In this document: positions 12,537 to 26,007 of the stretch, in pieces
Layout: every line of letters starts with the position of its first letter
Position numbering within the stretch: position 1 is the stretch's first letter
NCBI GenBank assembly: GCA_014359475.1
Contig: JACIZI010000031.1
Location: 1-40,021 of the forward strand
From: Marinobacter sp.
Lineage (GTDB): Bacteria > Pseudomonadota > Gammaproteobacteria > Pseudomonadales > Oleiphilaceae
DNA length: 40,021 nt
Direction of reading: 5' to 3'
Position numbers and translations under genes: made by a program
The notes under the pieces: generated by a model
Databases searched by the model: none
Seen by the model: only the letters and a program-made list of their open reading frames with translations
Told to the model about the DNA's origin: nothing

Positions 12537-12571
12537 CAGCGGGAGAGACCTCAGTCGAATGGCAATTGAGT

Positions 12572-12595
12572 CTGGTGCGAGTGGCCCTGCACCAG
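12572..12595. other. hairpin downstream of uvrA
   Basis: A perfect 7-bp inverted repeat CTGGTGC / GCACCAG encloses 10 bases, 35 bp past the uvrA stop. There is no T-tract, so it is not a typical intrinsic terminator. It marks the edge between housekeeping genes and the exopolysaccharide locus. Confidence 0.45.
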
Positions 12596-12646
12596 AATGC
12601 ACAAAAAAAGGGCGCGTGCTTTATTTAGGTCATCGTTTTTAATCGG

Positions 12647-12659
12647 CCTGTTTTACAGG
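12647..12659 (+). promoter_or_regulatory. inverted repeat upstream of the priming transferase promoter
   Basis: CCTGTTTTACAGG is a 5-3-5 inverted repeat centred about 60 bp before the predicted start point. The related sequence CCAGATTTACAGG, with 11 of 13 bases the same, occurs at 25617-25629 (minus strand) upstream of the other EPS promoter. It may bind a shared regulator. Confidence 0.35.
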
Positions 12660-12685
12660 ATATTGTTTTTAAAGGTGTATTCTTT

Positions 12686-12701
12686 TGGCAAGCAGCTTGC
12701 T
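12686..12701 (+). promoter_or_regulatory. sigma-54 promoter of the priming transferase/EpsL unit
   Basis: TGGCAAGCAGCTTGCT carries both conserved blocks, TGGCA and TTGCT, with exactly 10 bases between GG and GC. The predicted start point near 12712 leaves about 27 nt, containing the ribosome site AAAGGAG, before the ATG at 12739. The region is AT-rich compared with its surroundings. Confidence 0.75.
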
Positions 12702-12738
12702 TCTTATTTGGTAGTTATGACACCAAAGGAGCAAGCCG

Positions 12739-14196
12739 ATGGACTGGAATTCGGTCACAGGAAACAGCATTCGCTCCACTTCAGCGTTTCGCCCTGTTAT
12801 CAAACGGCCGAAACGGCTGCTGCAGAATCACGACAATCTTCTGCACTATATCCAGATCGGCTTGAGCATCCTGATTTCGACCGTAATGATGTTCGCGCTC
12901 GCCTGGTGGCGGGATGGGTTGATTCTCGAACATTACCGTTCACTGGCGGTCATCTCTGGTCTGCTGATCCTGGTGATTTACGAGTGGCGCGGCGTCTATC
13001 GCAGATTCTCCGGTCGTATTGATACCTGCCTGCGTCTGGCGCGATCCTGGCTTCTGGTAACGGCCTTGACCATTGTGGCCACCTTTCTTACGAAGACCGG
13101 CAACGATTTCTCACGCATGGTCATCCTTGGCTGGGGTGCGGCAGGTTACATCGCGCAGGTCATTGCCTACCTGTTGTCGTTCAAACTGTCGCAACGCTAT
13201 CGCTATCATCGCAAGCAGCCAATCCGTGCGGTCGTACTCGGGTCTTACTGGCTGGCCGAACATCTTGTTGAAAGCATCACCAGCAACGAATGGATGCCCG
13301 ACCGGGTTATCGGTGTCATAGACGACAATAGAGACGGTCTGAAAGGATGGACACGTGACCCGGTTCCCTACTTGGGAGACTTTGACGAACTGGGCTCCAC
13401 CCTTCAATCTAGGGAGATAACCCGCGTTTACATCGCGCTGCCCATCACCTGCTCTGCCACCATTGAAGAAATTTGCAGAAAGCTGGCTGACATTCCCGTA
13501 GATGTGGTCTGGGTGCCGGATATTTTTGCCATGCGCCTGCTCAACCATTCCGTGAAAGAGCTCAACGGCCTGCCGCTGATATCACTGTCAGAAAGCCCCC
13601 TGGTCTCCCAGTCCCAGGCTCTCGCCAAAAGTGTTGTTGACAAGGTGTTCGCCTTGCTTGCTCTGGTCCTTCTCAGCCCATTCATGATGGTGATTGCTTT
13701 CCTGGTGAGGCACGAATCACCCGGGCCAATACTCTTCAAGCAAAAACGCCACGGCTGGGATGGCAGGATCATCGAAGTCTGGAAATTCCGGTCCATGTAT
13801 ATGCACGTTGATGACCGTGTTCGTCAGGCCACCAAGAACGATGAACGGATTACCCGGATCGGACGCTTCATTCGGCGCACCAGCATTGACGAGTTACCCC
13901 AGTTATTCAATGTGCTTCAGGGCACCATGTCCCTGGTGGGACCGCGCCCCCACGCCATTGCCCACAATGATCTCTATACCAAAAAGATCCAGTCCTACAT
14001 GCTGCGCCACCGCATCAAACCGGGAATGACGGGTTTGGCCCAGATCAACGGCCTGCGGGGCGAAACCGATACGCTCGAGAAGATGCTGCGGCGGGTGGAA
14101 CTGGACCTGGAATACATCAATACCTGGTCCATATGGGCGGATATCAAGATCCTGGTCAAGACGCCCTTCTCGCTGTTCTCGGACACAGCCTATTGA
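12739..14196 (+). CDS. undecaprenyl-phosphate glucose phosphotransferase (GumD/WcaJ type)
   Basis: Starts EPS repeat-unit synthesis by moving sugar-1-phosphate, most likely glucose, from a UDP-sugar onto undecaprenyl phosphate at the inner membrane. The product is 485 aa, close to GumD. Four hydrophobic segments occupy about 35-150, followed by a CoA-binding-like (Rossmann-type) domain with VLGSYWLAEHLVE. A further membrane segment is near 300-320, leading into the C-terminal bacterial sugar transferase domain with KQKRHGWDG, KFRSMYMHVDD, and DELPQLFNVLQGTMSLVGPRPH. The start follows AAAGGAG with ideal spacing. Its stop overlaps the next gene by one base (TGATG). Glucose specificity is inferred from similarity and neighbours. 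Confidence 0.9.
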   Translation: MDWNSVTGNSIRSTSAFRPVIKRPKRLLQNHDNLLHYIQIGLSILISTVMMFALAWWRDGLILEHYRSLAVISGLLILVIYEWRGVYRRFSGRIDTCLRLARSWLLVTALTIVATFLTKTGNDFSRMVILGWGAAGYIAQVIAYLLSFKLSQRYRYHRKQPIRAVVLGSYWLAEHLVESITSNEWMPDRVIGVIDDNRDGLKGWTRDPVPYLGDFDELGSTLQSREITRVYIALPITCSATIEEICRKLADIPVDVVWVPDIFAMRLLNHSVKELNGLPLISLSESPLVSQSQALAKSVVDKVFALLALVLLSPFMMVIAFLVRHESPGPILFKQKRHGWDGRIIEVWKFRSMYMHVDDRVRQATKNDERITRIGRFIRRTSIDELPQLFNVLQGTMSLVGPRPHAIAHNDLYTKKIQSYMLRHRIKPGMTGLAQINGLRGETDTLEKMLRRVELDLEYINTWSIWADIKILVKTPFSLFSDTAY

Positions 14197-15344
14197 TGTG
14201 GCGGTCACCGATTCCTCTATTGCTCTGCCTGATGGTTAAAACACTGGCCGCCGAGGCGGATGATAACCTATCGGCAAGGGCCAGTATCAATCACACTTGG
14301 GACAGCAACTATGACCGCTCCCCAGACGCCTTCTCCGAGCAAATCACCGAGGCCAGCCTGGGTGCCGGTATCAGAAAGTCCATTCGTCGTCAGACCCTGA
14401 GCGCCGGTATCGGCGCTTCTCGCTACCGCCACCGGCATAGGGATTTTCTGGACGCAACACTTTATCGCGGCAGTCTTCGTTGGCAGGGGGAGTTTGGCAG
14501 CCGGATCTCGTTCACTTTGCTATGGGACTACCGCGACCGGTTGGCGGACCGGTTGGACTTTGCCGGCAGAGACATCATTAATCGTGACGAGAAAAAAGCG
14601 TCCTTTAACTACGCGGTTTACGCCGGATGGTCATTGGTCGGTGGTGTTCGGGATGCCGAACAGACGCACTCGAATGAAGATCGTCAGTCTCTGGACTTTG
14701 AAGAATATGACTTCAACGCCGGAGTACAGTACCGGTCCGGTCGAGGGTCGAGGGTCACGCTCCGGTATACTGGTGGCGAGCGCCACTTCTCCAATCCCGC
14801 TAGCGATAGTTTGTCTGCCACTGGCGCACGAGGAGACCTGGATTATGATTACCAGCGCCTGGACTTTGAGACTGAATGGCAGGTCACCGGCAAAACCCGG
14901 GTAACCGGCACTATCGGTCATTTTGACCGGGATGGCGAGATCAACTCCGGTAAAGGCCTTAAGGCGAGCCTCCAGACCGACTGGCAGGCCACTGAAAAAA
15001 CCATATTAAATCTGACGTTCGGATACGACGAGCCCGCCGTGGGTGAGGACTCAACCAACCCCAGCGAAATCCGGCGCCTGGGTGCTTCCGCATCCTGGCA
15101 GTGGACCGAAAAGATCACCCTCAATACCTCAGCAAAAGTGGAGCTAAAGCAATTCAATGATCGCTTCGCGCGCGTTCCCCGGGACGAAGAAATTTACTAC
15201 TGGCGACCGGTGGTGCTCAACTACACCATAACCGATATGATCAGCATGCGCTTGGCCAGCGGCTTTCAGCAACGCAAATCACCAATCGAAAGCCTCAACT
15301 ACACTGCGCGGGAACTTTCGCTCGGTCTCTCTGGCCAATTTTAG
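14196..15344 (+). CDS. outer membrane beta-barrel protein of EPS export (EpsL type)
   Basis: A 382-aa protein starting at the ATG that overlaps the preceding stop (TGATG). The signal peptide is MWRSPIPLLLCLMVKTLAAEA. It is followed by alternating amphipathic strands rich in Tyr, Trp, Arg and Asp, and ends in Phe (LSLGLSGQF), the outer membrane barrel insertion signature. Length, repeats and context fit the EpsL family found with EpsE/EpsF/EpsG export systems, where it is thought to help the polymer cross the outer membrane. The sequence is fast-evolving, so family assignment rests mainly on topology and neighbours. Confidence 0.72.
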   Translation: MWRSPIPLLLCLMVKTLAAEADDNLSARASINHTWDSNYDRSPDAFSEQITEASLGAGIRKSIRRQTLSAGIGASRYRHRHRDFLDATLYRGSLRWQGEFGSRISFTLLWDYRDRLADRLDFAGRDIINRDEKKASFNYAVYAGWSLVGGVRDAEQTHSNEDRQSLDFEEYDFNAGVQYRSGRGSRVTLRYTGGERHFSNPASDSLSATGARGDLDYDYQRLDFETEWQVTGKTRVTGTIGHFDRDGEINSGKGLKASLQTDWQATEKTILNLTFGYDEPAVGEDSTNPSEIRRLGASASWQWTEKITLNTSAKVELKQFNDRFARVPRDEEIYYWRPVVLNYTITDMISMRLASGFQQRKSPIESLNYTARELSLGLSGQF

Positions 15345-15532
15345 GGAGCAAGTAGCAGATCATGCCCACCAGGCTCAGCGCCGGCACGCTGAGATATTCA
15401 GGCACGTCGTCCGGGTAGCGGGTCGCCCCCGGCCATCATCTATGGTTATTGAGGCAATAAAAGCGGGGATGACCGGGATAATGACGCGGCGGCCCCGCTC
15501 TGCGAAAACCCGCCTGGCTCAGGTAAACAGGT
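15345..15532. other. decayed or non-coding stretch between convergent EPS units
   Basis: About 190 bp with no intact gene. On the minus strand, fragments read as protein-like in two different frames, for example FAERGRRVIIPVIPAFIAS and YPDDVPEYLSVPALSLVGM, but stops and frame changes separate them. A CTCAGCG/CGCTGAG hairpin at 15374-15393 has no T-tract. The stretch may be the eroded 3' part of the adjacent flippase gene. Confidence 0.4.
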
Positions 15533-15799
15533 TCAGGTAGAAACAGGTAGATGCAAAGGTCTCAGATCCTGAACAATCGCCTTGTCCGGCCCTGCATTGG
15601 TGATGAGCTTGCCGATATCCACCGGTATTAGGGCAAACCCAACCAGCCCGATCTCAACGGGACTGAGCAGTCTCGAAATCATCACGAAAACGATGACGCC
15701 GGTGATACTGGTGGCGGTGGCACCAATGCTCATCCAGAGTGTGCTGGAGCCCAACCGCTTTTTAAGCGCTCATTTCCTTTCAGCCTCCGGGCGACTCAT
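15533..15799 (-). pseudogene. remnant of a Wzx/GumJ-type polysaccharide flippase
   Basis: On the minus strand an ATG at 15797-15799 opens MSRPEAERK and is followed by an in-frame TGA at 15770-15772. The same frame then continues through ALKKRLGSSTLWMSIGAT and VFVMISRLLSPVEIGLVGFA up to AGPDKAIVQ. This is the characteristic N-terminus of lipopolysaccharide/EPS flippases of the MOP superfamily. After AIVQ the frame turns into unrelated residues and stops at 15533. Only about 60 of the usual roughly 450-500 residues remain. The gene therefore has a nonsense codon and a large 3' loss. It lies immediately downstream of the GT25 gene, in the operon position where a flippase would fit. Confidence 0.72.
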
Positions 15800-15829
15800 C
15801 GTGTTCGGTTTGACCCGAAACAACTGGCG

Positions 15830-16603
15830 TTAGCGATATTTCACCCGTTGATAGTTGAGTAGCGTCCTTCGACCAGCACCAAAAATACTTTTTGGGGACA
15901 GCCGACTCGGTGCAACGCCGCCGGTGCCGGGTTTTATTTCATTGTGTTCGATATTGCTGCTGAAACGCTGGTTATCCGGATTCAGAAACTTGTCCTGAAT
16001 GCACGGGGCAGGCGAACACTGAGCGATATTCAGTGGTGGAGATAATACCGGCTCCTCAACACAGTAAAGCATAACATCAACGGGCTGATGACGCTCTGGA
16101 GGAACGTCAACAAGTCTCTGGGCTGCTTCACGGGTGATCAGGTAGGCGCCGGCACACCAGGTGGTCGATAGTACGGTATTGAAATCGCGCTCCTCGAACG
16201 ATGCCAACTTGTGCTTGCCCAGTCTCACCCGATTTGTGGAGGGTTCAAGGCGAATGAGGTCGGTACCCGCCGGCACCCAGGAGTCGGTTCTTAGAAGTGA
16301 CTGCAACCCATCGGAAATATGCAGATCATCCTCGAAGACGGCGCAGACCGGTTGATCGCCGCTGGCAATGGCCTCCCAGGCCAGCCGATGGCTAAGCAGA
16401 CAGCCCATCTGACCCCGCATCCATCCTTTTTTGTGATCCCGGGGACGGGCGTTCTTGAACGCCTCATAGTCGGTTTCCGGCATCTGATGGCCATCTACCC
16501 CCGGAATCCGCTCGTATTCGAGCCCCAGCCTGTCGAACTGTTTTTTAAAGGATTGCAGACGATCACTGTCTTTACTCATATTAATAACATAAGACTTAAT
16601 CAC
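15830..16603 (-). CDS. glycosyltransferase family 25 protein
   Basis: A 257-aa cytoplasmic transferase of the LPS-biosynthesis GT25 family, which moves a sugar (often galactose or glucose) from a nucleotide donor. The N-terminus IKSYVINMSKDSDRL matches the family's opening strand. GCLLSHRLAWE is at 68-77 and the metal/nucleotide motif FEDD at 90-93. The start is GTG (16601-16603) with the strong ribosome site GGAGGG. The longer open frame to 16630 starts before that site. It is the last intact gene of the minus-strand EPS unit. The sugar it adds is unknown; it could extend the side chain where xanthan uses GumI. Confidence 0.85.
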   Translation of the reverse strand: MIKSYVINMSKDSDRLQSFKKQFDRLGLEYERIPGVDGHQMPETDYEAFKNARPRDHKKGWMRGQMGCLLSHRLAWEAIASGDQPVCAVFEDDLHISDGLQSLLRTDSWVPAGTDLIRLEPSTNRVRLGKHKLASFEERDFNTVLSTTWCAGAYLITREAAQRLVDVPPERHQPVDVMLYCVEEPVLSPPLNIAQCSPAPCIQDKFLNPDNQRFSSNIEHNEIKPGTGGVAPSRLSPKSIFGAGRRTLLNYQRVKYR

Positions 16604-16681
16604 GGGCTCCCTCCTTCTTCTACAGGTCAAATCATATGCTGGCCAGATCTGTCAGGGACGCCAGCCAGGTGGTCTTTCCAT

Positions 16682-17425
16682 TTACGAACGAAGACGACTG
16701 ACGCAGCGCGCCAAGAAAAGAGCCATATCCAGTGTGTAGCGACGCATCAGGCGAGTGGGTTCGAGACTCAACCGGAACGCCCATTCCAGGTGCATGCGAC
16801 GAAGAAACCGGGGCGCGCGGGGCACATTGCCCGCAAGAAAGTCCAGTAACGCGCCCACACCGATCAATAGCCGGGCCTGCAGTCGGCCCCGGTACGCCAG
16901 CACCCACTGCTCCTGCAAAGGATTCCCCAGAGCCACCAGCACCACGTCTGCCCCGGATTCATTGATGGATCGAATTAGCGCATCGTTATCCCGGCTGTAT
17001 CCGTCACAGGTACCAACGACTCGGACGTGTTTTTCCCTGAGCTTGTCTGCTGCCCGTTCCGCAATGCCAGGTTTGCTGCCAAACAGATAGACGCCCCAGG
17101 GCCGGTCACTGACTCGGGCATTATGAGCGAGTAAGGCGGGAGTGTAATCCGTACCATTGAGATTTTCGGGGAAACTGCGGCGGTGAATCAGCCAACTGGC
17201 AATATTCATGGCAATGCCATCGTTGACCAGGATCACATCCGGACCATTCAACTCGTCTCTAAAGCTGTCGCATTTATTCACCAGATTGCTGTTCACGAAA
17301 AAAAGCGAGATCTGCCTGTCCGTCTCCACGGCAGTAGAAATACGGCGCGTAAGGGAACGGTATGTCAGCGCCCTGACCCTCAGGCCACCGAGGGGGAGCA
17401 TCGTCTTGTCGTCTGCTACAGCCAT
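16682..17425 (-). CDS. GT26 (WecG/TagA/CpsF family) glycosyltransferase, GumM-type
   Basis: A 247-aa transferase. Family hallmarks are VNSNLVN near 44-50, DVILVNDGIAM at 63-73, VVLVALGNPLQEQW at 161-174 and the C-terminal GVGALLDFLAGNVPRAPRF. In xanthan synthesis the GT26 member GumM adds the second backbone glucose (beta-1,4) to Glc-PP-undecaprenol. The same role is inferred here from the company of GumH- and GumK-like proteins. The start was chosen as ATG 17423-17425, 7-8 bases after AAGGGG. A GTG two codons upstream is possible. It begins 2 bp after the GumK-like gene stops. Confidence 0.88.
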   Translation of the reverse strand: MAVADDKTMLPLGGLRVRALTYRSLTRRISTAVETDRQISLFFVNSNLVNKCDSFRDELNGPDVILVNDGIAMNIASWLIHRRSFPENLNGTDYTPALLAHNARVSDRPWGVYLFGSKPGIAERAADKLREKHVRVVGTCDGYSRDNDALIRSINESGADVVLVALGNPLQEQWVLAYRGRLQARLLIGVGALLDFLAGNVPRAPRFLRRMHLEWAFRLSLEPTRLMRRYTLDMALFLARCVSRLRS

Positions 17426-17427
17426 GC

Positions 17428-18621
17428 TCACACCCCTTCCCGCATGCGGGTATCATCATACTTCTGAGGATGAAGAATTCGATCCGTTACCGCCCCCCAG
17501 TCCAGATGCCGGCAGGAAGGCCGGTGGGGCGCTTCCATCGCCTGGAGAATCGCCCGCTCAATAGACGCACCATCACCCGGGGTGTAGCCAATGCGGCTGT
17601 TGTAGTCCCCGACCACCGCCCAGGGACACACCGCCGGAAGCCCCAGAAAATCGTATTGCATGAGTTTCATGGAGGTGTCCGCCAGATAATCGGGAACCTC
17701 TGCGCCTCTATAAGGTGCGATACCGAAGGTGGCATGCTTGAGATAGCGGATGGTGTCGCTGTGGGGCATTTCCTCATACAGGGTAACGTTAGGGCCAAAG
17801 GCATCAGACATGGGCTGACCACATCCAATGATATGGAAATGGATGTAGGGAAACTGCCTGGATGCGACGACAAAAAAGTCCGCATCAAACAGCATCGAGC
17901 CCACCGATACCGCATGGATCCCCGGTCCATACGGAGAGGCGCCAGCATTAGTCGCCAGGGAGCGATCGATGCCATGGGGAATAAAGCGAAGATTGGCCCC
18001 CCCGGGCATCGTTTTCTGCAGTGCTTTTGAGGGCAGGCAGATGGTCGTCATCGCCGGTGCTACGCGCTGGAACGTCTGTTTGATATAGTCAGCGGCGTTG
18101 ATGGTATCGAGTGCGTCAGAGGCGATATAAACGGTCTGTGCTGATGGATTTAGATATTTCGCCATGTCAAAGAAGATGGGTGCGATACCGCTTTCAAACA
18201 GGATAACATCGGCTTGAGCCATCCATTTCCGTAGGGTCGCGCCTGCACTGCTGATATACCACCGAAAAAACAGGGCTTCCGCGGGGCGCAGAAATGGCTT
18301 GCGTATGTTGATCGGATGCAGCAGCGTCTTCCACAGGTAGCAGTCCACACCCTCATGCTGCTCGACCCGGTTGGCCCGGGCGTCGAGGCTCAGGCGCGGA
18401 TCGCCGGTGTATCGTGACAAGCGGCTGTAACGCAGGGAAAAAAAACGGGCGTTGCCCTGCTTTGCCAATTCGCGGGTGATGAAATGAACACGGGCTTTGC
18501 GCGGTGAACGATAGTCATGGGCAGATAACATAAGGTAGTTCGGCACCCCGTCACCTGTCTCAGCATTTGACCGCTCTGGCGTCGAACTTGTGCCCTGCGT
18601 TGCCGGTTTCTCTGGTATCAT
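17428..18621 (-). CDS. gumK: GumK-like glucuronosyltransferase (GT70)
   Basis: A 397-aa membrane-associated transferase predicted to move glucuronic acid from UDP-GlcA onto the side-chain mannose of a lipid-linked EPS repeat. I recognise strong GumK similarity from memory: LMLSAHDYRSPRKA at about 30-43, HFITRELA, RFFSLRYSRLSRYTGDPRL, FESGIAPIFF, IHAVSVGSMLFDADFFVVAS, and SSMKL-like DTSMKLMQYDFLGLPAVCP near the C-terminus. Residues 1-27 are a variable Ser/Thr/Glu-rich leader. The start ATG 18621 follows GAGGGT. It lies 32 bp downstream of the GH5 gene and 2 bp upstream of the GT26 gene, clearly one operon. Confidence 0.9.
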   Translation of the reverse strand: MIPEKPATQGTSSTPERSNAETGDGVPNYLMLSAHDYRSPRKARVHFITRELAKQGNARFFSLRYSRLSRYTGDPRLSLDARANRVEQHEGVDCYLWKTLLHPINIRKPFLRPAEALFFRWYISSAGATLRKWMAQADVILFESGIAPIFFDMAKYLNPSAQTVYIASDALDTINAADYIKQTFQRVAPAMTTICLPSKALQKTMPGGANLRFIPHGIDRSLATNAGASPYGPGIHAVSVGSMLFDADFFVVASRQFPYIHFHIIGCGQPMSDAFGPNVTLYEEMPHSDTIRYLKHATFGIAPYRGAEVPDYLADTSMKLMQYDFLGLPAVCPWAVVGDYNSRIGYTPGDGASIERAILQAMEAPHRPSCRHLDWGAVTDRILHPQKYDDTRMREGV

Positions 18622-18653
18622 CGTTGTACCCTCGGGTCAATTCATCAGTCTGG

Positions 18654-19772
18654 TTAACCATCTATCTTTAAATTACCTGGCGGCATCGGAGGACAGTCTT
18701 CCTGCCTTCTTTCCCCGCATTGTTTCGCGCTCAGATACGGTGCCACGACCTCCATTTGAGCAGCATCAGAGCCGTTTTTCGGCGCAATGGACAGAGGATA
18801 GCCCCCCCACCAGGCGCCACCGGCCCAGTAGGTCCAGCCCCGCCATACGTTGCTGTCTTCCATCAGTGACAGCATTCTGTCCAGGGAGGCAAGACATGTA
18901 TCACTTTTTGGTACGCCGAACTCACCGAGGAATAATTGTTGGTCATTGTCCTGGGCCCACTTTTCGATCGATGCAAACATGCCATTGAAATGGGCAGGTT
19001 CGTGGCAGGTATTTTTGGTGCCGGAATAGTATTGATCCGCATACTGATGAACCTGCAGTACCGTGCGCCCGAGGGGATCACTGAAATCAGCGAAGGTTCC
19101 GGAATTACTGGCTCCCGAGATGGTCTTGCTCCATTCGTGCACGCCGCTCCAGCGACCGCCTGAAACAAATATAAGCTGGTCAGCACCGGCCTCGCGCAGG
19201 GCGTTCACCGTACTCTGGGCAACCTGTCCCCAGAAGGCGATGTCCAGCGTGAACGGCTCGTTCATCAGGTCGAGAACCAGATACCGGGGATTATCAAGGG
19301 CATCAGCAATGCGCAGCCACAGATCGTGAAAAGCCTCGACCGGCACTTCAGCTGAACCAATAGGCATGTCGTTATACGTGCCGTAATTGTGGATATCGAG
19401 GATCAGACAGATTCCACGCTCTCTTGCTGCGGCCAGTGTTTTGCCTATGGCTGCCATTTCCTGCTCATTGAGTTCTGCGAACAGCTCTCGCTGCACGCGC
19501 TCCCAGCGCACCGGCAGACGAATTGCGTTGACACCTTTATTGGCGTAGTAATCCATTTCACCGTTACTGGGATAGGTGTAGTCCTTGTACATGACACCGG
19601 GCCGCTTAGCGCCATTGAATTCCGCGCCCGCCAGGTTCACGCCGCGCAGATCCTGATTCTCGAGGCAGACCGCGAAGACCGGCAGGCTGCATAGTGACAG
19701 CATTAACCCCGCCAGCCGGCTGGTAATCTTTAGGCGGCCCAACTGCGCCCGCTTACTCTCATTTTCGTACAT
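18654..19772 (-). CDS. secreted glycoside hydrolase family 5 endoglucanase
   Basis: A 372-aa predicted beta-1,4-glucan-cleaving enzyme. A charged N-region of 19 residues leads into the hydrophobic LAGLMLSLCSLPVFA, so it is exported to the periplasm or beyond. GH5 motifs: RLPVRWERVQ at 85-94, DIHNYG at 126-131, the acid/base Glu172 in LMNEPF, VHQYAD at 241-246 and the nucleophile Glu284 in LGEFGV. Six or so cysteines may form disulfides. It sits 2 bp after the GumH-like gene, inside the operon. A cellulase here fits a polymer with a cellulosic backbone, acting in length control, release or clearing of mislocalised chains. That role is inference. Confidence 0.92.
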   Translation of the reverse strand: MYENESKRAQLGRLKITSRLAGLMLSLCSLPVFAVCLENQDLRGVNLAGAEFNGAKRPGVMYKDYTYPSNGEMDYYANKGVNAIRLPVRWERVQRELFAELNEQEMAAIGKTLAAARERGICLILDIHNYGTYNDMPIGSAEVPVEAFHDLWLRIADALDNPRYLVLDLMNEPFTLDIAFWGQVAQSTVNALREAGADQLIFVSGGRWSGVHEWSKTISGASNSGTFADFSDPLGRTVLQVHQYADQYYSGTKNTCHEPAHFNGMFASIEKWAQDNDQQLFLGEFGVPKSDTCLASLDRMLSLMEDSNVWRGWTYWAGGAWWGGYPLSIAPKNGSDAAQMEVVAPYLSAKQCGERRQEDCPPMPPGNLKIDG

Positions 19773-19774
19773 AG

Positions 19775-20893
19775 TCAGTCACCCAGTTGCCGGTATATAT
19801 CGAAGTAATCCTGCACAATTCGCGGCCAGCCGTAGCGATCCGCAAAGGCCTCTGCTGCCGAGCGACGTGCGCTCGCCGAATCCTGCCCGTGTTTGTGGAG
19901 ATCAATCAGGTTGCCGGCGCCAGTGTTCACTGCCGTCCGGTCCACCATCAGCCCGATGCCGCTTTCTTCCAGGAGCCGGCGAAACGGCGGAATATCGCTC
20001 AACACGGGTGTGAGCCCCGCACTCAGCGCCTCGATAGCTGCCAGGCCGAAGCCCTCATGGCGGGACAGGCAGAGAAAGTAACTGGCGTTGCCAATCAACG
20101 CCCGCAGCCGTTCATTGGATGGATTCGGGGCGATGATGACCGAATTGGCAAGACCCCGGTCCTGGGCTTCCCGCTCAAGATCCCGCGCACTGTAATCATA
20201 TTCGCGTCCGGCGATAATGAGTCGCCAGCCTTCATCCCCGCCGTTTAGCGCCCGCAGGAAATCCAGTGATTCCAGCAGCCCCTTATTGGATGACCATCGC
20301 CCGAAATAGATCAACGTCCTGCGCAATGCCGTGCTGGCACAATCAGCATACTTGCCCGTGTCGACACCATTCTCGATCACAGTGAGCCGCGACGGCGCCA
20401 CCACGCGACCGAACAATTTGCCGTCGTTCTCACTGGTGGCAATAATCCGGTCGTAAGCAATTGACGAGGCGCGGGTTATCGTCTGGAACCAAAGCTGCTT
20501 GAGCCGGCTGGCAAACGCCGTGTGAAAAAAACCACCGTGGGTCGATAGCAACAGGGGTCGACGGTGAAGGCATTTTGTGGCTGCCAGAAAGTCGTAGAAA
20601 AAGTCGACACCATGAACATGGATGGCATCCGCGGCCCTGACTTCACGCAGGATGCGCGGACAGAGCGGATACCGGCTGGAGCCAAAATAAGGCAGCCGAG
20701 TGACATGCACGCCCTCCATTTCCTCTTCATAAGGAAGCGGGCTCTCTCCTTGGCGAAAAAGTCTGTCCAGGGTGATGACTCTTGGCTTTACACCCGATTG
20801 CGCCAACTGATTCGCCGCAATATTGCGCACGACATCTTCCATTCCACCCACCGAAGGCGAGTACTGCCGCACCACATGAGTAACGTTGATCAT
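19775..20893 (-). CDS. gumH: GumH-like alpha-1,3-mannosyltransferase (GT4)
   Basis: A 372-aa GT4 transferase expected to move mannose from GDP-mannose onto the lipid-linked cellobiose of the repeat unit. Similarity to xanthan GumH and acetan AceC is strong as I remember them: HVVRQYSPSVGGMEDVVRN at 6-24, GSSRYP at 71-76, HVHGVDFFYDFLA at 92-104, STHGGFFHTAFASRLKQLWFQ at 117-137 (differing little from GumH), IATSENDGKLF, and the EX7E motif with Glu280 and Glu288 in RHEGFGLAAIEAL. The start overlaps the polymerase stop by 4 bp (ATGA). Linkage and sugar are inferred from the homologue. Confidence 0.92.
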   Translation of the reverse strand: MINVTHVVRQYSPSVGGMEDVVRNIAANQLAQSGVKPRVITLDRLFRQGESPLPYEEEMEGVHVTRLPYFGSSRYPLCPRILREVRAADAIHVHGVDFFYDFLAATKCLHRRPLLLSTHGGFFHTAFASRLKQLWFQTITRASSIAYDRIIATSENDGKLFGRVVAPSRLTVIENGVDTGKYADCASTALRRTLIYFGRWSSNKGLLESLDFLRALNGGDEGWRLIIAGREYDYSARDLEREAQDRGLANSVIIAPNPSNERLRALIGNASYFLCLSRHEGFGLAAIEALSAGLTPVLSDIPPFRRLLEESGIGLMVDRTAVNTGAGNLIDLHKHGQDSASARRSAAEAFADRYGWPRIVQDYFDIYRQLGD

Positions 20894-22179
20894 CGTGGGT
20901 TAACCTCCGACTGCATGAAAGGGGACACGGAGGCGATGCCGTGTCGCTTACGGGCCCGGACTCCCAGGGATGCCCACGCCGTCTCACGGCTCTCCATCGG
21001 GTGCTTCATGACCACACCAAACAGAAACCACAACGGCCCTGCGGTTTTCATGGCAAACAGCGAACTGCCGCTGACGCACAGGATCAGGGCGATATAGATA
21101 CCGGCGTAGCAACGAAAACGACGGGCCTGGTCGTCGGGGGCGGGAATCAACCAGAAAACCAGCCAGAGAGCCATTACCAGGACCAGCCCGAATCGGGCAA
21201 ACGAATAGGCATAGCCCTGGTCCGGGAAACCGTCGCGGTTGCCGAAACCCAGCAACGTATCAACATCAAAATCGACCAGACTGCGACCACTGGATGCCAG
21301 CCGGCCAAGATAGTCGTCCCCCTGGATACTGAGTCCAAAAACGCCAAGCCCCACCAGAACCCCAACCAGAAGCAGTGGCAGCAGGGCTGGCAGGTATGCG
21401 GCCCAGCCATTCAACAGCAGGCGAGCCACCACCAGAGCCCCCACCGAAAGCAGTGCGAAGCGTGAGTCGGCGAGCACAATCAGTACCACCGCAGCGCCGA
21501 TAAATAACAGGGTGAGATTGAGCTGACTTCGATCCTTGGCCAGGCCCCAAGCTGCGATGATCGTTGCAAAATTACCCATGGACACCGGCTCCAGGAATAC
21601 CGACGATACACGGTGGCTGTCGAGGAGCCCCGGCAACAGGGTCCGGCCAATGCCCGGAGGCCGGATACCGTTCATCTGCAGGCGGCTGTCCCGCTGGTAT
21701 TCAGTGATTTCCTGAAGGCCCCCGGTATTGACGTAATAGGCGAAAATATTGAAGACCCGGGTGTACAGATTAAGGGCAAGGAGTTCCAGGAAGGCAAAGA
21801 ACAGCACAACCCCAACAATGACCGCTATTGCCTTGTCGATCCCGCCAGGATTGCCAGCGTTACGACCCGCCCAGTAGAAACACAACGGAATCAGCAAATC
21901 GCGGAAGGCCTTGACGTCCAGGCCACCGCCCAGAAGGGCCAGCAGGCATAGCATCCCGCCGCTTAACGCTGCCAGGATCACCACACCGGGCAAGACCCGC
22001 GGCAGAATCAGGGGCAGGCAGGCAATTAGTATCAGAAACTCCGACGCCGCAATAAGCGCTCTGGAGACAGGCAATCCCAACGTGTTAAGCGCACACAGGA
22101 CCGCTTGATAAACGACGGTACTGCCAAGCACCAGGAGAATCAGTCGGAACTGCCGCGAGTCCTCCACCGTGTTCTGCAT
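20890..22179 (-). CDS. EPS polymerase, Wzy/GumE type
   Basis: A 429-aa inner-membrane protein with about 10-12 hydrophobic segments and a long periplasmic stretch (about 150-200) containing RPPGIGRTLLPGLLDSHRVSSVFLEPVSMGNF. This is the kind of loop seen in O-antigen ligase/polymerase proteins. It is expected to join lipid-linked repeats in the periplasm. Length matches GumE. The start was set at ATG 22179 (MQNTVEDSRQFRL), preceded by AAGAGGTG. The open frame extends 13 codons further to a TTG but with no ribosome site. A short basic C-terminus (RARKRHG) lies in the cytoplasm. Confidence 0.8.
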   Translation of the reverse strand: MQNTVEDSRQFRLILLVLGSTVVYQAVLCALNTLGLPVSRALIAASEFLILIACLPLILPRVLPGVVILAALSGGMLCLLALLGGGLDVKAFRDLLIPLCFYWAGRNAGNPGGIDKAIAVIVGVVLFFAFLELLALNLYTRVFNIFAYYVNTGGLQEITEYQRDSRLQMNGIRPPGIGRTLLPGLLDSHRVSSVFLEPVSMGNFATIIAAWGLAKDRSQLNLTLLFIGAAVVLIVLADSRFALLSVGALVVARLLLNGWAAYLPALLPLLLVGVLVGLGVFGLSIQGDDYLGRLASSGRSLVDFDVDTLLGFGNRDGFPDQGYAYSFARFGLVLVMALWLVFWLIPAPDDQARRFRCYAGIYIALILCVSGSSLFAMKTAGPLWFLFGVVMKHPMESRETAWASLGVRARKRHGIASVSPFMQSEVNPR

Positions 22180-22242
22180 TGATCGAGCACCTCTTTCAAG
22201 TTGCAGGGTGATCCCCAATCATTCGTCCATGGTCGCACCGGC

Positions 22243-23139
22243 TCACTGAGAAAGCGTCACCCCCAACACGCTGACCCCCACGTCCTGCAGGCGACGGCAG
22301 GCGGCATCCAGCTTACGCATTGACGTGACGTTTTCCTGGGCCACGAGCAAGGCAGCTCCAGCGCGGTTAGCCACCAGTTGCGCGTCCAGATTGGTATCGA
22401 GAGACGGTGTGCTGGCAAGAATCACGTCAAACTGATCGGCCAGTGTCGCCGTCAGGTCCCGGTAGCGATTGTTTGCCAGCAACTCCTGGGGATTGGGGGC
22501 CGTCGTGCCCGCATTCAGTAGCCACAATGAATCAAGCGGGGCACAAAGCTGCGGATGAAACTCGGCCCGTGCTGCCAGGATGTCGGATAAGCCTAGACGA
22601 TTGGCACGGCCAAAAAGACGATGCAGGGAGGGTACGCGCAGGTTACAGTCCATCAGGAGTGTCTTGGCACCGAGCTGGGAGAACACGATCGCCAGATTGG
22701 CAACCAACGCGCCCGATTGATCCGCATCATCGGTGCTGACAAGCGGCAGAATACGCCTGTCCGGCCGGTCGAAATAGCGCAGCATGAGCTCACTGCGCAA
22801 CCCGCGCAATGCCTCTGCCCGCCGACTCTGCGGTCGCAGAGCTGCGGTCAGCGAACGGTCCAGTCTAGTGCCGGATAGCGGGGCGACGGGATAGGAAAAC
22901 TGCTCCGCAAGTGCCATTTTGACATCGTCAGCAGAAACCAGTCGCAACTTGATGGCCGCTTCTCCGAAACGCAGCTTTAGCTTTTCCTGAAGCCGGACCA
23001 CGCGGTCAATATCGTCGGCCGAGAGCTTACCGTTGCTATAGAGTACTCGCCCGATCTGGCCACTTTTTGCCAGGGTACGCCTGGTTGCCTCAGAAGTATC
23101 ATGGTTTTCAAACGCAAATGGAGGCTGGTACTCGTTCAT
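22243..23139 (-). CDS. EpsG-type chain-length tyrosine kinase homologue with degenerate ATP site
   Basis: A 298-aa cytoplasmic protein, normally the kinase partner of the EpsF/Wzc-type co-polymerase. The N-terminal part (about 25-90) resembles the MshEN-like domain of EpsG, with GKLSADDIDRVVRLQEKLKLRFGEAAI. The C-terminal part has the ParA/BY-kinase fold with ANLAIVFSQLGAKTLLMD. However, the P-loop position reads VSTDDADQSGALVANLA (134-150) with no Gly-Lys-Ser/Thr. Walker A' is LLMDCNLR rather than DADLR, and the Walker B region is VILASTPS rather than the usual DTP. No Tyr cluster ends the protein. It may be a regulatory pseudokinase. The start ATG 23137-23139 follows GAGGGA. Confidence 0.82.
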   Translation of the reverse strand: MNEYQPPFAFENHDTSEATRRTLAKSGQIGRVLYSNGKLSADDIDRVVRLQEKLKLRFGEAAIKLRLVSADDVKMALAEQFSYPVAPLSGTRLDRSLTAALRPQSRRAEALRGLRSELMLRYFDRPDRRILPLVSTDDADQSGALVANLAIVFSQLGAKTLLMDCNLRVPSLHRLFGRANRLGLSDILAARAEFHPQLCAPLDSLWLLNAGTTAPNPQELLANNRYRDLTATLADQFDVILASTPSLDTNLDAQLVANRAGAALLVAQENVTSMRKLDAACRRLQDVGVSVLGVTLSQ

Positions 23140-23153
23140 GGTATCCCTCAATT

Positions 23154-24512
23154 CTAGATCCAATGCCTTCGATCAGTGGGCAGGTAAGCCAGCACGGGGA
23201 GTCCCAGCGCATCCTCCAGGTCAGACCCGCTACGCACGCGACGGTTCACCAACTCCAGTATGAGGGCAAGCCCAATGCCCATAAGCAGACCCAGGGCGGC
23301 AGCGATTACCAGATTGAGCTTGACGTTCGGACCAGAGGGAGTTGAGGGCACGGTAGCGGCATTCAGGACAGCAATGCGGGTTTCGGCAAGTCGACTCTCC
23401 AGACGACTGGATGACGCCTGGTTCGCCGCCGCATTGTAGGCCTTTTGGGCCATGTCGGCCTCATGTTGCAGATAAGAGAGCTCATCCCGCTGGGAGGTCA
23501 ATTCGAGTACCTTCTGTTTCTGCTCGGCAACAGCTGCCGCCAGTTCCTTTTCCCGACTCATGGACAACTTCGCTGCTGAGCGGAGACTGCTACCCACGAC
23601 CGACGTTTCCCGGGCAATACGGGAGCGTAACGTAACAACTTCCGCGCGGGCCTGGATGTATAGGGGATGATTGGAGCCAAGTCGAGTGGACAACTCCTCA
23701 AGACGAGCTTCCGCTTCAGCGAGGTCAGAACGCAGCCTCTGCAGTACCGGACTGTTGATCACATCGGAGCCGGATGTACGCCATTCTTCACCCTCGCTAC
23801 TGTTCCTTTTGGTCTCGTCCTGCAGTCGCTGCCCCTGTGCCTCCACCAACATGGACGATAGCTCCCGGAGCTTGCTGTTCTCTACATCCAGACGCTCATC
23901 CACTGCCACGATGCCTTTTTCTCGCTGGTAGGACGACAGTGCTTCGCGCGCTTCCCGGAGATTTTTTCGCAGCACATTCAACTGGGTTTCGTACCATTTC
24001 GTGAACCGTCGCGCCGGCTCGGTACGCAATTCCAGACTGGCGCGAATGTAAGCCACGGCAACGGCATTCGCCAGCATAGCAGCAAATTCCGGTTTCTCAC
24101 TATCGACGCTAACCCGGATCACATTGCTATCGCGCCGCGGTGACGCTTTCACGTTTTTGATGATGTAATTGCCGATAAGACGATCCACCGCCATGCTGTC
24201 GAGCTCTTCCTGGCTGAACTGGCGTTTAGACAAAGCCTTGCCTTCATCAGACAGAAGCGCCCAGACCCGGTCGGCCACATTACGGCTGGTAATGATGTCC
24301 ACCTGGGTGGCGAGATAGCCCTTGCCCGAAGGCAGGTATTGACCGCTAAGTGGATCCTGGGCGTTGTCGTCCACGATCAGCTCGGTCGAAGCGGTGTAGG
24401 TCTTTGGCAGCATGATGGATATGGCAAGTACCGCGCCCACGCACAGCACAAAGCACCCAAAAACAAGCTTCCAGCGCGCGAGCAGTACGCGAAAAAACGT
24501 GTCGAACGTCAT
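23154..24512 (-). CDS. EPS chain-length determinant, EpsF/GumC (Wzz/PCP) type
   Basis: A 452-aa inner-membrane co-polymerase. An N-terminal Wzz domain with transmembrane segment 1 is at about 14-35 (WKLVFGCFVLCVGAVLAISIML). A long periplasmic coiled-coil-rich region (about 170-390, many Glu/Leu/Arg heptads) follows. Transmembrane segment 2 is at about 405-427 (LVIAAALGLLMGIGLALIL), with a short cytoplasmic tail (NRRVRSGSDLEDALGLPVLAYLPTDRR) that ends before any kinase domain. The partner kinase homologue is encoded separately 14 bp downstream. The start is ATG 24512 after GGAGGT. Like GumC, it should set chain length and link polymerase to the outer membrane exporter. Confidence 0.92.
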   Translation of the reverse strand: MTFDTFFRVLLARWKLVFGCFVLCVGAVLAISIMLPKTYTASTELIVDDNAQDPLSGQYLPSGKGYLATQVDIITSRNVADRVWALLSDEGKALSKRQFSQEELDSMAVDRLIGNYIIKNVKASPRRDSNVIRVSVDSEKPEFAAMLANAVAVAYIRASLELRTEPARRFTKWYETQLNVLRKNLREAREALSSYQREKGIVAVDERLDVENSKLRELSSMLVEAQGQRLQDETKRNSSEGEEWRTSGSDVINSPVLQRLRSDLAEAEARLEELSTRLGSNHPLYIQARAEVVTLRSRIARETSVVGSSLRSAAKLSMSREKELAAAVAEQKQKVLELTSQRDELSYLQHEADMAQKAYNAAANQASSSRLESRLAETRIAVLNAATVPSTPSGPNVKLNLVIAAALGLLMGIGLALILELVNRRVRSGSDLEDALGLPVLAYLPTDRRHWI

Positions 24513-24661
24513 GCGGCACCTCCCTCAATCGACAGCAGCAAGCCAACTGTCTCCGGGCGCTTTTGACACTCCGGCAAAGAGGCTCCTGCCCTGCCTCCTA
24601 TGGGCCCGCCTGGCAAACACGATTGCTTAATCAATGGTTTGACCCGCTTGCAGCACATCCA
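24513..24661 (-). other. 149-bp gap inside the EPS unit
   Basis: This is the largest gap inside the minus-strand EPS unit. I see no T-tailed terminator and no convincing promoter. An 11-codon frame overlaps the upstream stop as TGATG but has no ribosome site or family resemblance. Confidence 0.4.
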
Positions 24662-25474
24662 TCAGAACAGACTCTCCTTAACGAACAACACGTCCCCATC
24701 CTCAATTTTTTTATAAAGACCGACATCCTGTTTTTCCACACTGCCGTCTTTACGTTGCCGGTAGAGCACAACAGAGTCCTTGCTGGCTCGCTGGTTCATT
24801 CCCCCGCTGAGGCTCAGCGCCTGCATAACATTGAGCGGACGATTCAGGGCATAGGTGCCGGGATTGCGAACCTGCCCATTCACGTAAAAATGATCCACCA
24901 AGGGCACGTACAGAGTGTCACCACTCATCAGCCTCACGGCCTCCCGGCTTGCAGCATGACGATCAAGCAGTTCGGGCAGGTAAAATTCACGCCGCGACTG
25001 CTGTCCTTCGCTGTCAGTGCGAATCAGGACTATGCGCTCGCTTCCACGCTCGTTGATGCCGCCCGCCATAGCCAGTGCTTCCGTGAGTGTTATTGGCCCC
25101 CTGAGTGTGATGCGGCCTGGCTGATTAACCTGGCCCAATACTGCAATGGATTGACTGTGATATTCGGTCACCAGCACATTGACATGGGCTTTTTGCAGGT
25201 ACCCCCCAACTTCCAGCAGTTTCTCAATTTTCCGCGCTGCAAGCCTTGCGCTAAGACCGGCAACCTCAACCGAACCCAACAATGGCATCGCAACCACTCC
25301 GTAAACATCGATCTCAGTTTCCGTGGCCAGCTCTTCCTGCCCGTAGACGTGAATGCTGATACGATCCCCAGTACCCAGGATATAGGCGTTAGCTTCCTGC
25401 GCCTGGACAGATCCTGCGCAATTCAAGGCGGCTAATAACAGCACAATGGTGAATCGGCGCAGATACAATTCCAT
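24662..25474 (-). CDS. polysaccharide export protein, EpsE/GumB (Wza) type
   Basis: A 270-aa outer membrane export protein of the Wza family. The signal peptide is at residues 1-27 (MELYLRRFTIVLLLAALNC, cleavage near VQA-QEA). The Poly_export domain begins at ILGTGDRISIHVYGQEEL, and SLBB domains contain VLGQVNQPGRITLRGPITLTEALAMAGGI and FYVNGQVRNPGTYALNRPLNVMQALSLSGG. A Cys at 19 or so may be a lipobox, but LAALNCAG fits only loosely. The start was set at ATG 25474. The open frame continues upstream 61 codons but crosses the sigma-54 promoter and lacks export-signal sense. First gene of the long minus-strand EPS operon. Confidence 0.92.
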   Translation of the reverse strand: MELYLRRFTIVLLLAALNCAGSVQAQEANAYILGTGDRISIHVYGQEELATETEIDVYGVVAMPLLGSVEVAGLSARLAARKIEKLLEVGGYLQKAHVNVLVTEYHSQSIAVLGQVNQPGRITLRGPITLTEALAMAGGINERGSERIVLIRTDSEGQQSRREFYLPELLDRHAASREAVRLMSGDTLYVPLVDHFYVNGQVRNPGTYALNRPLNVMQALSLSGGMNQRASKDSVVLYRQRKDGSVEKQDVGLYKKIEDGDVLFVKESLF

Positions 25475-25525
25475 ACGGCGGTTATTCCCCTTTTTAAGCG
25501 CGACGGCAATAGAAGAAGGAGGCCG

Positions 25526-25541
25526 AGCAACATGATTGCCA
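25526..25541 (-). promoter_or_regulatory. sigma-54 promoter of the main EPS operon
   Basis: On the minus strand TGGCAATCATGTTGCT carries TGGCA and TTGCT with exactly 10 bases between GG and GC. The predicted start point is near 25515, 41 nt before the export gene's ATG. This is the second EPS promoter of this class in the window. Confidence 0.75.
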
Positions 25542-25616
25542 TCAGGTTTCAAAGTTGAGAGCGGCGCGCTCTTTGTCAGAGGAGTCCTGCAAAAAACGGC
25601 CCAGATGGAGGAAAAA

Positions 25617-25629
25617 CCTGTAAATCTGG
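25617..25629 (-). promoter_or_regulatory. motif shared with the other EPS promoter region
   Basis: CCAGATTTACAGG on the minus strand is identical at 11 of 13 positions to CCTGTTTTACAGG at 12647-12659. Its centre is about 108 bp upstream of the predicted start point, a usual place for an enhancer-binding protein. Chance cannot be excluded for a 13-mer. Confidence 0.35.
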
Positions 25630-25723
25630 AAAAGTAAGGGCAGGAAGGACGGGCCAAGACCGAGACACCCGCTGCTTCAGGCTTGCATCATCGGTCTCCA
25701 CGGCGACAACTCCGCACCAAGAA

Positions 25724-25742
25724 GTGACAGGTAAGCTGTCGC
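25724..25742. promoter_or_regulatory. inverted repeat upstream of the EPS operon
   Basis: GACAG-GTAAG-CTGTC is a perfect 5-5-5 dyad at 25726-25740 with partly matching flanks (GTGACAG / CTGTCGC). It lies about 218 bp upstream of the predicted sigma-54 start point and could be a distal activator site. Confidence 0.3.
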
Positions 25743-25762
25743 TCGCCCTATTACCAAGCACC

Positions 25763-25848
25763 AGCAGCCTGTCAGACTTGAGCGATCGTCATGAGCAAGG
25801 TGGGGAAAACGGCGCAGTAGATTACTGCCTTAAGTCCGAGAGGTTGCA
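25763..25848. repeat. palindromic intergenic repeat, copy 2
   Basis: An 86-bp element with imperfect 20-bp terminal inverted repeats (15 of 20 pairs), AGCAGCCTGTCAGACTTGAG at 25763-25782 and its partner at 25829-25848. The arms and the inner blocks GAGCAAGGTG and GGCGCAGTAGATTA also occur at 25-118, there in the reverse half-order. It lies between the EPS locus and the ribosomal cluster. Confidence 0.68.
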
Positions 25849-25879
25849 GTGTCCCGTCTGGTTAATTCGCTCACCTACT

Positions 25880-25915
25880 GAGCCACTGGGAGCCTTGAAA
25901 GGCTCTCAGTGGCTC
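25880..25915. other. long 15-bp hairpin downstream of rplQ
   Basis: GAGCCACTGGGAGCC pairs with GGCTCTCAGTGGCTC (one G-T pair) around a 6-base loop. A second hairpin, GTTTGCC/GGCAAAC, lies at 25948-25973, so three hairpins including the rplQ terminator stand in a row. Neither of these two has a T-tract; they may block read-through from the ribosomal operon into the EPS locus. Confidence 0.5.
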
Positions 25916-25973
25916 CCGAGGGGCGCGGCGCTGAGGTCCCTGGCCGGGTTTGCCGGCTTTTCGCCGGGCAAAC

Positions 25974-26007
25974 AAAAAAGCCGGACACCTCTCGGCACCC
26001 GGCTTTT
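25974..26007 (-). terminator. Rho-independent terminator of the alpha operon
   Basis: On the minus strand AAAAGCCGG pairs with CCGGCTTTT around a 14-base loop and runs into TTTTTT, 20 bp after the rplQ stop. Confidence 0.88.

What the first reader, a model, noticed from the sequence alone, without database searches (positions are those of the whole stretch)
12686..25541. Xanthan/acetan-like exopolysaccharide locus outside the xanthomonads and acetic acid bacteria
The set GumD-type primer, GT26 (GumM-type), GumH-like GT4, GumK-like GT70, GumE-type polymerase, GumC/EpsF and GumB/EpsE exporters predicts a repeat of Glc-Glc backbone with a Man-GlcA side chain. GumH- and GumK-like similarity is strong by eye. 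GumF, GumG, GumI and GumL counterparts (acetyl, outer mannose, pyruvyl) are missing, and GT25 and GH5 genes are present instead. The polymer is therefore probably a truncated or differently decorated xanthan-like chain in a gammaproteobacterium with a marine-type gene order.
Basis: partly seen in the sequence, partly recalled or inferred. Interest (0 to 1): 0.8.

Follow-up and report, generated by a model that had tools for sequence, protein, structure and literature searches.

The report
Marine xanthan-like polymer locus, broken flippase
A marine bacterium carries a probably transferred gene set that should make the core of a xanthan-like slime polymer, a known kind of gene set in a new host and arrangement, but the gene that should flip the sugar unit across the membrane is a wreck.

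Summary
The gene set is real. GT70 is a true GumK relative (PDB 2HY7, 450 bits), GT4 is its partner in 11 of 14 loci read, and GT26 and a GumD-type glucose-1-P primer are present. A Glc-Glc-Man-GlcA core is the best prediction; no chemistry was tested. Missing GumF, G, I, L and an endoglucanase are also published for Kozakia and acetan-type clusters, so they are not new.

What differs: (1) export genes of EpsE/F/G/L type. (3) The ~13.4 kb block splits uvrA from rplQ, which lie within about 1.5 kb of each other in 28 of 29 other genomes checked. GumK is in 4 of 124 genomes of the genus, and the closest GT70s are in another genus, so horizontal gain is likely.

The other genes are open with dN/dS 0.04-0.20 where measurable, so a flippase in trans (contig 1) is my preferred reading, with a dead locus as main rival. 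In sister loci a MurA-MurB-GT2 cassette, absent here, hints at a lactyl-ether sugar. New variant of a known kind.

The parts
12739..14196 (+). polyprenyl-phosphate glucose-1-phosphate transferase (WcaJ/GumD type), 485 aa; first step of the repeat unit
   Evidence: TIGR03023 476.5 bits (cut-off 410.75), PF02397, PF13727; 85% and 81% identical to the primers of L015/L016, only 38-44% to those of L017-L019
14196..15344 (+). EpsL-like outer-membrane beta-barrel, the likely outer-membrane pore
   Evidence: TIGR03014 164 bits, below its cut-off of 275; 57-60% identical to L015/L016; start chosen by eye
15346..15770 (-). Wzx flippase pseudogene: frame broken just after the start, frame broken near codon 70, about 300 internal codons missing, C-terminal end missing, several stops
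   Evidence: tblastn with intact L015 Wzx: codons 3-69 (78% identical), 74-86, 392-423, 435-457 in different frames; three-frame reading; 73-aa piece hits PF01943/PF13440 below their cut-offs
15830..16630 (-). GT25 glycosyltransferase, accessory; possible side-chain sugar (galactose or glucose, inferred)
   Evidence: PF01755 91 bits; 49% identical over 257 residues to L016 GT25; present in L016 and L017, no match in L015, L018, L019
16682..17431 (-). GT26 (WecG/TagA/GumM type), predicted second backbone glucose
   Evidence: PF03808 174.8 bits; 52-72% identical in five related loci
17428..18621 (-). GT70, GumK orthologue, predicted beta-1,2-glucuronosyltransferase
   Evidence: GumK_N 210.6 bits; PDB 2HY7 450 bits over residues 23-393; the Asp that the 3CUY chain has as Ala is Asp here
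18654..19772 (-). GH5 endoglucanase with signal-like N-terminus (by eye), likely periplasmic or secreted
   Evidence: PF00150 154 bits; PDB cellulase 5HPC 279 bits, NEP and GEF motifs shared in the alignment (catalytic roles recalled)
19775..20893 (-). GT4, GumH/AceC-like, predicted alpha-1,3-mannosyltransferase
   Evidence: PF00534, PF13439; 33-76% identical over its length to the GT4 of eight other GT70 loci, and at most 30% to nine other glycosyltransferase-like proteins of this genome, stretches of 14 and 38 residues aside
20890..22218 (-). Wzy-type polymerase (GumE position)
   Evidence: no Pfam or NCBIfam match; 57-75% to five related loci, 33% to the Acidomonas locus
22243..23163 (-). 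EpsG-like protein, probably not an active tyrosine kinase
   Evidence: TIGR03029 266 bits, below its cut-off of 313.8; no GK[ST] and no tyrosine in the last 25 residues here or in five relatives
23154..24512 (-). EpsF-type polysaccharide co-polymerase
   Evidence: TIGR03017 452.6 bits (cut-off 422.75)
24662..25474 (-). OPX exporter (EpsE/GumB type); start chosen by eye at an ATG before a signal-like segment (ORF opens at 25657)
   Evidence: PF02563, PF10531, PF22461; similarity to Wza chains stops at residue 305 of the ORF
12510..25971 (.). approximate extent of the inserted block between uvrA and rplQ
   Evidence: homology to seven junctions of the genus ends at 12472-12509 and resumes at 25963-25974

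Best explanation
A gum/acetan-like Wzx/Wzy-type exopolysaccharide locus, gained by horizontal transfer between uvrA and rplQ. The primer puts Glc-1-P on the lipid carrier, GT26 adds Glc, GT4 adds Man, GT70 adds GlcA, and GT25 may add one more sugar. The Wzy polymerase with EpsF/EpsG makes the chain, the OPX and EpsL export it, and GH5 trims the glucan backbone. The locus' own flippase has decayed, so the lipid-linked unit is most likely flipped by another flippase of the cell, the best candidate being the one on contig 1. Shown: gene families, the block's position between uvrA and rplQ, the pseudogene. Inferred: sugars, linkages, order of addition, transfer, flippase in trans.
For: Family and structure matches. 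GT4 and GH5 with GT70 in 11 of 14 loci read. GDP-mannose supply: GMP/PMI gene, 701 bits. UDP-GlcA supply: NDP-sugar dehydrogenase, 481 bits. Position: uvrA within about 1.5 kb of rplQ in 28 of 29 other genus loci fetched, boundaries. GumK in 4 of 124 genus genomes; best GT70 relatives 76-77% in another genus against 59-60% within the genus. Ten genes free of stops, dN/dS 0.04-0.20 in 23 of 30 comparisons, dS saturated in 7. Strong flippase elsewhere: C1, 292 bits, in a polysaccharide-type locus; the genome's three PF02397 primers are all on other contigs. The two same-genus genomes in whose loci I found no flippase (G094, G100) have two and three strong flippases elsewhere, 172-264 bits.
Against: No expression or chemistry. 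The contig-1 flippase is only 28-29% identical to the in-locus flippases of relatives, and flippases are often selective (recalled). dS is too saturated to see a recent relaxation of selection. Side-chain sugar of GT25 unknown. Polymerase assigned by position and similarity to untested relatives. Primers of the other kind (WecA type) were not searched. No housekeeping yardstick between the two genera was computed for the transfer claim.
Confidence: 0.6

Rival explanations
1. The locus is dead or dying: loss of the flippase came first and the other genes have not yet decayed; no polymer is made.
For: Flippase wrecked by several lesions; the primer-MurA-MurB-GT2-EpsL order of L015/L016 is reduced to primer-EpsL here; acetan-type loci are reported as unstable, with aceA disrupted by an insertion sequence or transposase (PMC7961339 section 5); the window branch carries more unique amino-acid changes than L015 or L016 (150 against 78 and 71), though that is also expected from the tree.
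Against: Ten genes compared have no stop and low dN/dS where measurable; GT25 is full length; most Acetobacter acetan loci are also reported without the flippase gene aceE.
Confidence: 0.3
2. The locus works but makes a different core, for instance with another second sugar from GT26 or another hexose from the GT4, so the xanthan likeness is limited to the GlcA step.
For: GT26 is placed only in the WecG/TagA superfamily by model, and the GT4 passes no specific NCBIfam model; the G. diazotrophicus PAl5 polymer is reported without GlcA (PMC7961339) although a gumK is annotated there (PMC5050591).
Against: GumK acts on the lipid-linked Man-Glc-Glc unit in Xanthomonas (PMC6801904, passages); GT4 and GT26 lie with GT70 in the related loci; the GH5 is endoglucanase-like.
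Confidence: 0.15
3. The flippase lesion is an assembly or sequencing error and the locus is whole.
For: Draft assembly of 85 contigs; no reads could be examined.
Against: Several separate lesions including loss of about 300 codons within one continuous contig.
Confidence: 0.05

Closest known systems
Kozakia baliensis gum-like cluster (PMC5050591, passages seen)
   Same: gumB,C,D,E,H,J,K,M-like set, gumF/G/I/L missing, endoglucanase in the cluster
   Different: gumJ flippase present, own ugd in the cluster, 722-aa GumC, acetic acid bacterium; here EpsE/F/G/L-type export, a GT25 and a wrecked flippase
Acetan cluster of Komagataeibacter xylinus (PMC7961339, abstract and two sections read)
   Same: AceA/B/C plus GumK-type core, Eg hydrolase, beta-barrel AceG; flippase gene missing in most Acetobacter versions; lateral spread described
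   Different: no gene left here for AceP/Q/R, GumF or AceI; a GT25 instead
Xanthan gum operon of Xanthomonas campestris
   Same: GumD, M, H, K steps and Wzx/Wzy logic; GumK 450 bits
   Different: no GumF, G, I, L in the locus; GH5 present; different export proteins (recalled for Xanthomonas). Gum proteins other than GumK were not compared directly
EpsE/EpsF/EpsG/EpsL export set (XrtB/PEP-CTERM loci by NCBIfam models; methanolan recalled)
   Same: EpsF over its cut-off, EpsG and EpsL models matched below theirs
   Different: joined here to xanthan-type glycosyltransferases

Membership tests
gum/acetan-like cluster | GumK (GT70) orthologue with catalytic Asp | tested here: met
   that the kept Asp is the catalytic one is recalled
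gum/acetan-like cluster | GumD/AceA-type glucose-1-phosphate primer | tested here: met
   TIGR03023 over cut-off
gum/acetan-like cluster | GT26 (GumM/AceB) and GT4 (GumH/AceC) next to GT70 | tested here: met
   Xanthomonas GumH and GumM were not available, so met through relatives only
gum/acetan-like cluster | intact Wzx flippase (GumJ/AceE) in the cluster | tested here: not met
   pseudogene at 15346-15770; aceE is reported missing from most Acetobacter loci too
gum/acetan-like cluster | polymer with beta-1,4-glucan backbone and Man-GlcA branch | not testable with these tools
   needs sugar and linkage analysis
xanthan proper | GumI outer mannosyltransferase, GumF/GumG acetylases, GumL pyruvyltransferase in the operon | tested here: not met
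   every gene of 12.7-25.5 kb is otherwise assigned; elsewhere in the genome not tested
EpsE/F/G/L export set | EpsF, EpsG and EpsL models over their cut-offs | tested here: inconclusive
   EpsF over, EpsG 266 of 313.8, EpsL 164 of 275; OPX was not run against NCBIfam

The most novel reading that the evidence does not exclude
A marine branch of gum-like loci makes a xanthan-type core that is further decorated with a lactyl-ether sugar (MurNAc-like, or 3-O-lactyl-glucuronate as in nosturonic acid) built by a dedicated MurA-MurB pair and placed by the GT2; the window strain carries a reduced form that lacks the cassette, has lost its flippase, and now borrows a flippase from another polysaccharide locus.
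Probability: 0.25. Interest if true: 0.7.

Novelty: new variant of a known kind. Interest (0 to 1): 0.38.

Why it matters
It extends gum-like polymers, used as thickeners, to a marine genus with a different export machine, and gives a natural test of whether such a locus can work with a flippase from elsewhere. The MurA-MurB-GT2 cassette of the sister loci offers candidate genes for lactyl-ether sugars such as nosturonic acid. My searches showed no paper that names such genes; of the papers listed I looked at passages of only three (PMC5983295, PMC8657804, PMC6801904), so this is not proof that none exists.

Tried and rejected
Considered and rejected: GH5 as a substitute for missing gum genes (it accompanies GT70 in 11 of 14 loci read, and is reported in Kozakia and acetan clusters). 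GT4 as an ordinary LPS enzyme of this genome (at most 30% to nine other glycosyltransferase-like proteins, stretches of 14 and 38 residues aside). A hidden MurA-MurB-GT2 cassette in the window or a second MurA in the genome (no window match better than E 0.5; only two EPSP-family genes in the genome). Mobile-element scars at the two borders: the repeat finder gave no direct repeats and one imperfect 29-nt inverted repeat at 25868-25927, inconclusive.

Led nowhere: direct comparison with Xanthomonas Gum proteins other than GumK. The one genome-contig scan returned six loci, no Xanthomonas, and the class and phylum samples hit GumK_N in 2 of 369 and 4 of 398 genomes, own genome included (one of the four below cut-off). 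Paper searches for Marinobacter with gumK, GumK with GT70 and marine, and Marinobacter with glucuronosyltransferase and exopolysaccharide gave 0 papers each; Marinobacter with xanthan, exopolysaccharide and gene cluster gave 8, of which I looked at passages of one, which spoke of alginate genes in a Marinobacter and of no gum cluster. Lactyl-ether gene searches; no relevant genetics seen in listings or in the passages.

Dropped before counts: the two weak hits G019 and G025 (24% identity, E 5e-4 to 6e-4) are not counted as GumK; L027 (4.4 kb contig) was left out of the 14 loci; L023 and L017 are the same place and counted once. The 14 are the window, L015-L019, L024-L026, L028, L050 (all with GH5 and the GT4) and L049, L051, L127 (neither). 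Other GT70 hits (G894, G521, the 14 plasmid hits other than H1) were not read for partners. Of the 57 other genus genomes with an rplQ match, the 29 best-scoring were fetched and checked.
Full report
What is there. Between uvrA (ends 12536) and rplQ (minus strand, 26028-26426) lies a block of eleven open genes and one wrecked gene. Two run on the plus strand (primer, EpsL) and the rest on the minus strand, in the order of transcription OPX, EpsF, EpsG, polymerase, GT4, GH5, GT70, GT26, GT25, flippase remnant. Models name most of them: primer TIGR03023 476.5 bits over a cut-off of 410.75; EpsL TIGR03014 164 bits, below 275; GT25 PF01755; GT26 PF03808; GT70 GumK_N 210.6 bits; GH5 PF00150; GT4 PF00534 and PF13439; EpsG TIGR03029 266 bits, below 313.8; EpsF TIGR03017 452.6 bits, over 422.75; OPX PF02563 and SLBB. 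The polymerase has no Pfam or NCBIfam match and rests on similarity to its counterparts in related loci.

GumK is the firmest call. The GT70 aligns with Xanthomonas GumK (2HY7) over residues 23-393 at 450 bits; one deposited variant (3CUY) differs from 2HY7 in the printed alignment by Ala for Asp at a position where the window has Asp (that this is the catalytic Asp157 is recalled). The GT4 is 33-76% identical over its length to the GT4 of eight other GT70 loci and at most 30% to nine other glycosyltransferase-like proteins of this genome, apart from stretches of 14 and 38 residues. Kozakia GumH is reported as 44% identical to X. campestris GumH (PMC5050591, passages); the window GT4 is 43% identical to a GT4 of another acetic acid bacterium, Acidomonas. 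That supports the mannosyltransferase reading at two removes. I could not get Xanthomonas GumH itself.

Supply of precursors is present: one GMP/PMI gene of 701 bits and an NDP-sugar dehydrogenase of 481 bits on contig 78, with a second of 389 bits on contig 27. Both could serve other polymers.

An intact Wzx lies after GT26/GT25 in L015 and L016. With L015 Wzx as query, the window shows codons 3-69 at 78% identity, then 74-86, 392-423 and 435-457, in changing frames within 15346-15766. Reading the stretch in three frames shows a frame break just after the start codon, further stops, and an end cut next to the EpsL stop. That is several lesions, so I take it as a true pseudogene, though reads were not available.

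Other flippases. The genome has three PF13440 matches: contig 1 (292 bits), contig 27 (56 bits, in a locus with its own primer) and contig 85 (30 bits, probably MurJ by inference). Contig 1 carries a polysaccharide-type locus; the three PF02397 primers of the genome are on contigs 25 (this locus), 14 and 27. Primers of the WecA type were not searched. In six genomes with GumK loci compared, the two same-genus relatives in whose loci I found no flippase (G094, G100) have two and three strong ones elsewhere (172-264 bits), while G041 and G044 have only the in-locus one as a strong match and G015 has a weakly matching one (23 bits) in the locus. This fits a flippase in trans, but six genomes are few, and the contig-1 protein is only 28-29% identical to the in-locus ones of L015/L016.

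Selection. Ten genes compared with L015 and L016 have no internal stops; dN/dS (NG86) is 0.04-0.20 in 23 of 30 comparisons, dS being saturated in the other 7. The window branch has more unique amino-acid changes (150 against 78 and 71, L017 as outgroup, nine genes), which is expected if L015 and L016 are sisters and neither shows nor excludes decay.

Horizontal gain. GumK is in 4 of 124 genomes of the genus (one of them 62% complete), in 6 of 151 of the family sample when two 24%-identity hits are set aside, in 2 of 369 of the class sample and in 4 of 398 of the phylum sample, one below cut-off; the own genome is in every count and the samples overlap. In rplQ loci of 29 other genomes of the genus (the best-scoring of 57 with a match), uvrA is within about 1.5 kb in 28; the exception is G100. 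Alignments of seven of those junctions place the inserted block at about 12.51-25.97 kb. The GT70 is 76-77% identical to two genomes of another genus and 59-60% to two of the same genus; a housekeeping yardstick between those genera was not computed, so transfer is inferred.

Compared with what is known. Kozakia baliensis has gumB, C, D, E, H, J, K, M-like genes, lacks F, G, I, L, and has an endoglucanase in the cluster (PMC5050591, passages). Acetan clusters have AceA, AceB, AceC, GumK, an Eg hydrolase and a beta-barrel AceG; most Acetobacter versions lack the flippase gene aceE, and lateral transfer is described (PMC7961339, sections 4 and 5). GumI and GumL are said to have no homologues elsewhere (PMC6801904, passages). 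So the reduced gum set, the GH5, the missing flippase and the mobility each have precedent in acetic acid bacteria; what I did not see there is the EpsE/F/G/L-type export set joined to these transferases, the GT25, and this host group. GH5 and the GT4 accompany GT70 in 11 of 14 loci I read; the three without are G197, G803 and a Sphingomonas paucimobilis plasmid.

A lead outside the window. In L015, L016 and L017 the same locus also holds a MurA-like and a MurB gene plus a GT2. The two MurA-like proteins scanned (L016, L017) pass the broader NF006873 model (350-353 of 297 bits) but not the MurA equivalog TIGR01072 (337 of 392.7); the MurB proteins pass TIGR00179. So the family assignment is good, but a divergent substrate is only a guess. 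A Cys, Asp, Arg and Lys of MurA and a Ser of MurB are kept in the printed alignments (residue roles recalled except the Cys). L018 has MurB and GT2 only; L019 and the window have none. A close MurA copy (83-100%) is in 4 of 151 family genomes, three with GumK; the fourth, G109, has MurA and MurB without GumK and with no evident polysaccharide genes in the 20 kb read. More distant MurA-MurB pairs lie in loci with a primer in G094 (contig 33), G099 and G082, while a further MurA-like gene of G094 (contig 66) stands alone. Plasmids of Haematobacter massiliensis (near a UDP-glucose/GDP-mannose dehydrogenase gene) and Qingshengfaniella alkalisoli (MurA-MurB-GT2 in a row, among catabolic genes) carry them too. 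A lactyl-ether sugar is the natural product of such a pair; UDP-MurNAc for the cell wall or its recycling remains possible. 3-O-lactyl-glucuronate (nosturonic acid) is reported in Vibrio alginolyticus and Nostoc polymers (PMC5983295, passages); the words gene and biosynthe- do not occur in that text. This is a lead, not a result.

Verdict. I rate it a new variant of a known kind, interest 0.38.

Noticed in passing
L016:14543-17941 (also L015, L017; L018 in part): MurA-like, MurB and GT2 genes form a cassette inside sister gum-like loci; similar pairs lie in other polysaccharide loci (L118, L120, L121) and on two alphaproteobacterial plasmids (L125, L126). Candidate genes for lactyl-ether sugars.
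   Followed up: partly
window 22243-23163: The EpsG-like protein has no GK[ST] Walker A and no tyrosine in its last 25 residues, here and in five relatives; residues 36-88 match a c-di-GMP-binding MshE-type model below its cut-off (29.8 of 38 bits), so it may sense c-di-GMP rather than act as a kinase.
   Followed up: partly
G000 contig 1, L020:663-17098: Polysaccharide-type locus with several glycosyltransferase-like and sulfotransferase-like genes (by eye) and a strong flippase but no PF02397 primer.
   Followed up: partly
G000:C78:66965-67039: Short GMP_PMI-like fragment with a stop (25 bits), about 3.6 kb from a UDP-sugar dehydrogenase gene; possibly a remnant or chance.
   Followed up: no
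window 25868-25927: Imperfect 29-nt inverted repeat (79%) near the rplQ-side border of the inserted block; terminator, repeat element or border scar not decided.
   Followed up: no
L018:2007-3083: A gene beside the GumK locus of G094 looks by eye like an acyltransferase (possible GumF/G counterpart), but no NCBIfam model matched it and Pfam was not run.
   Followed up: no
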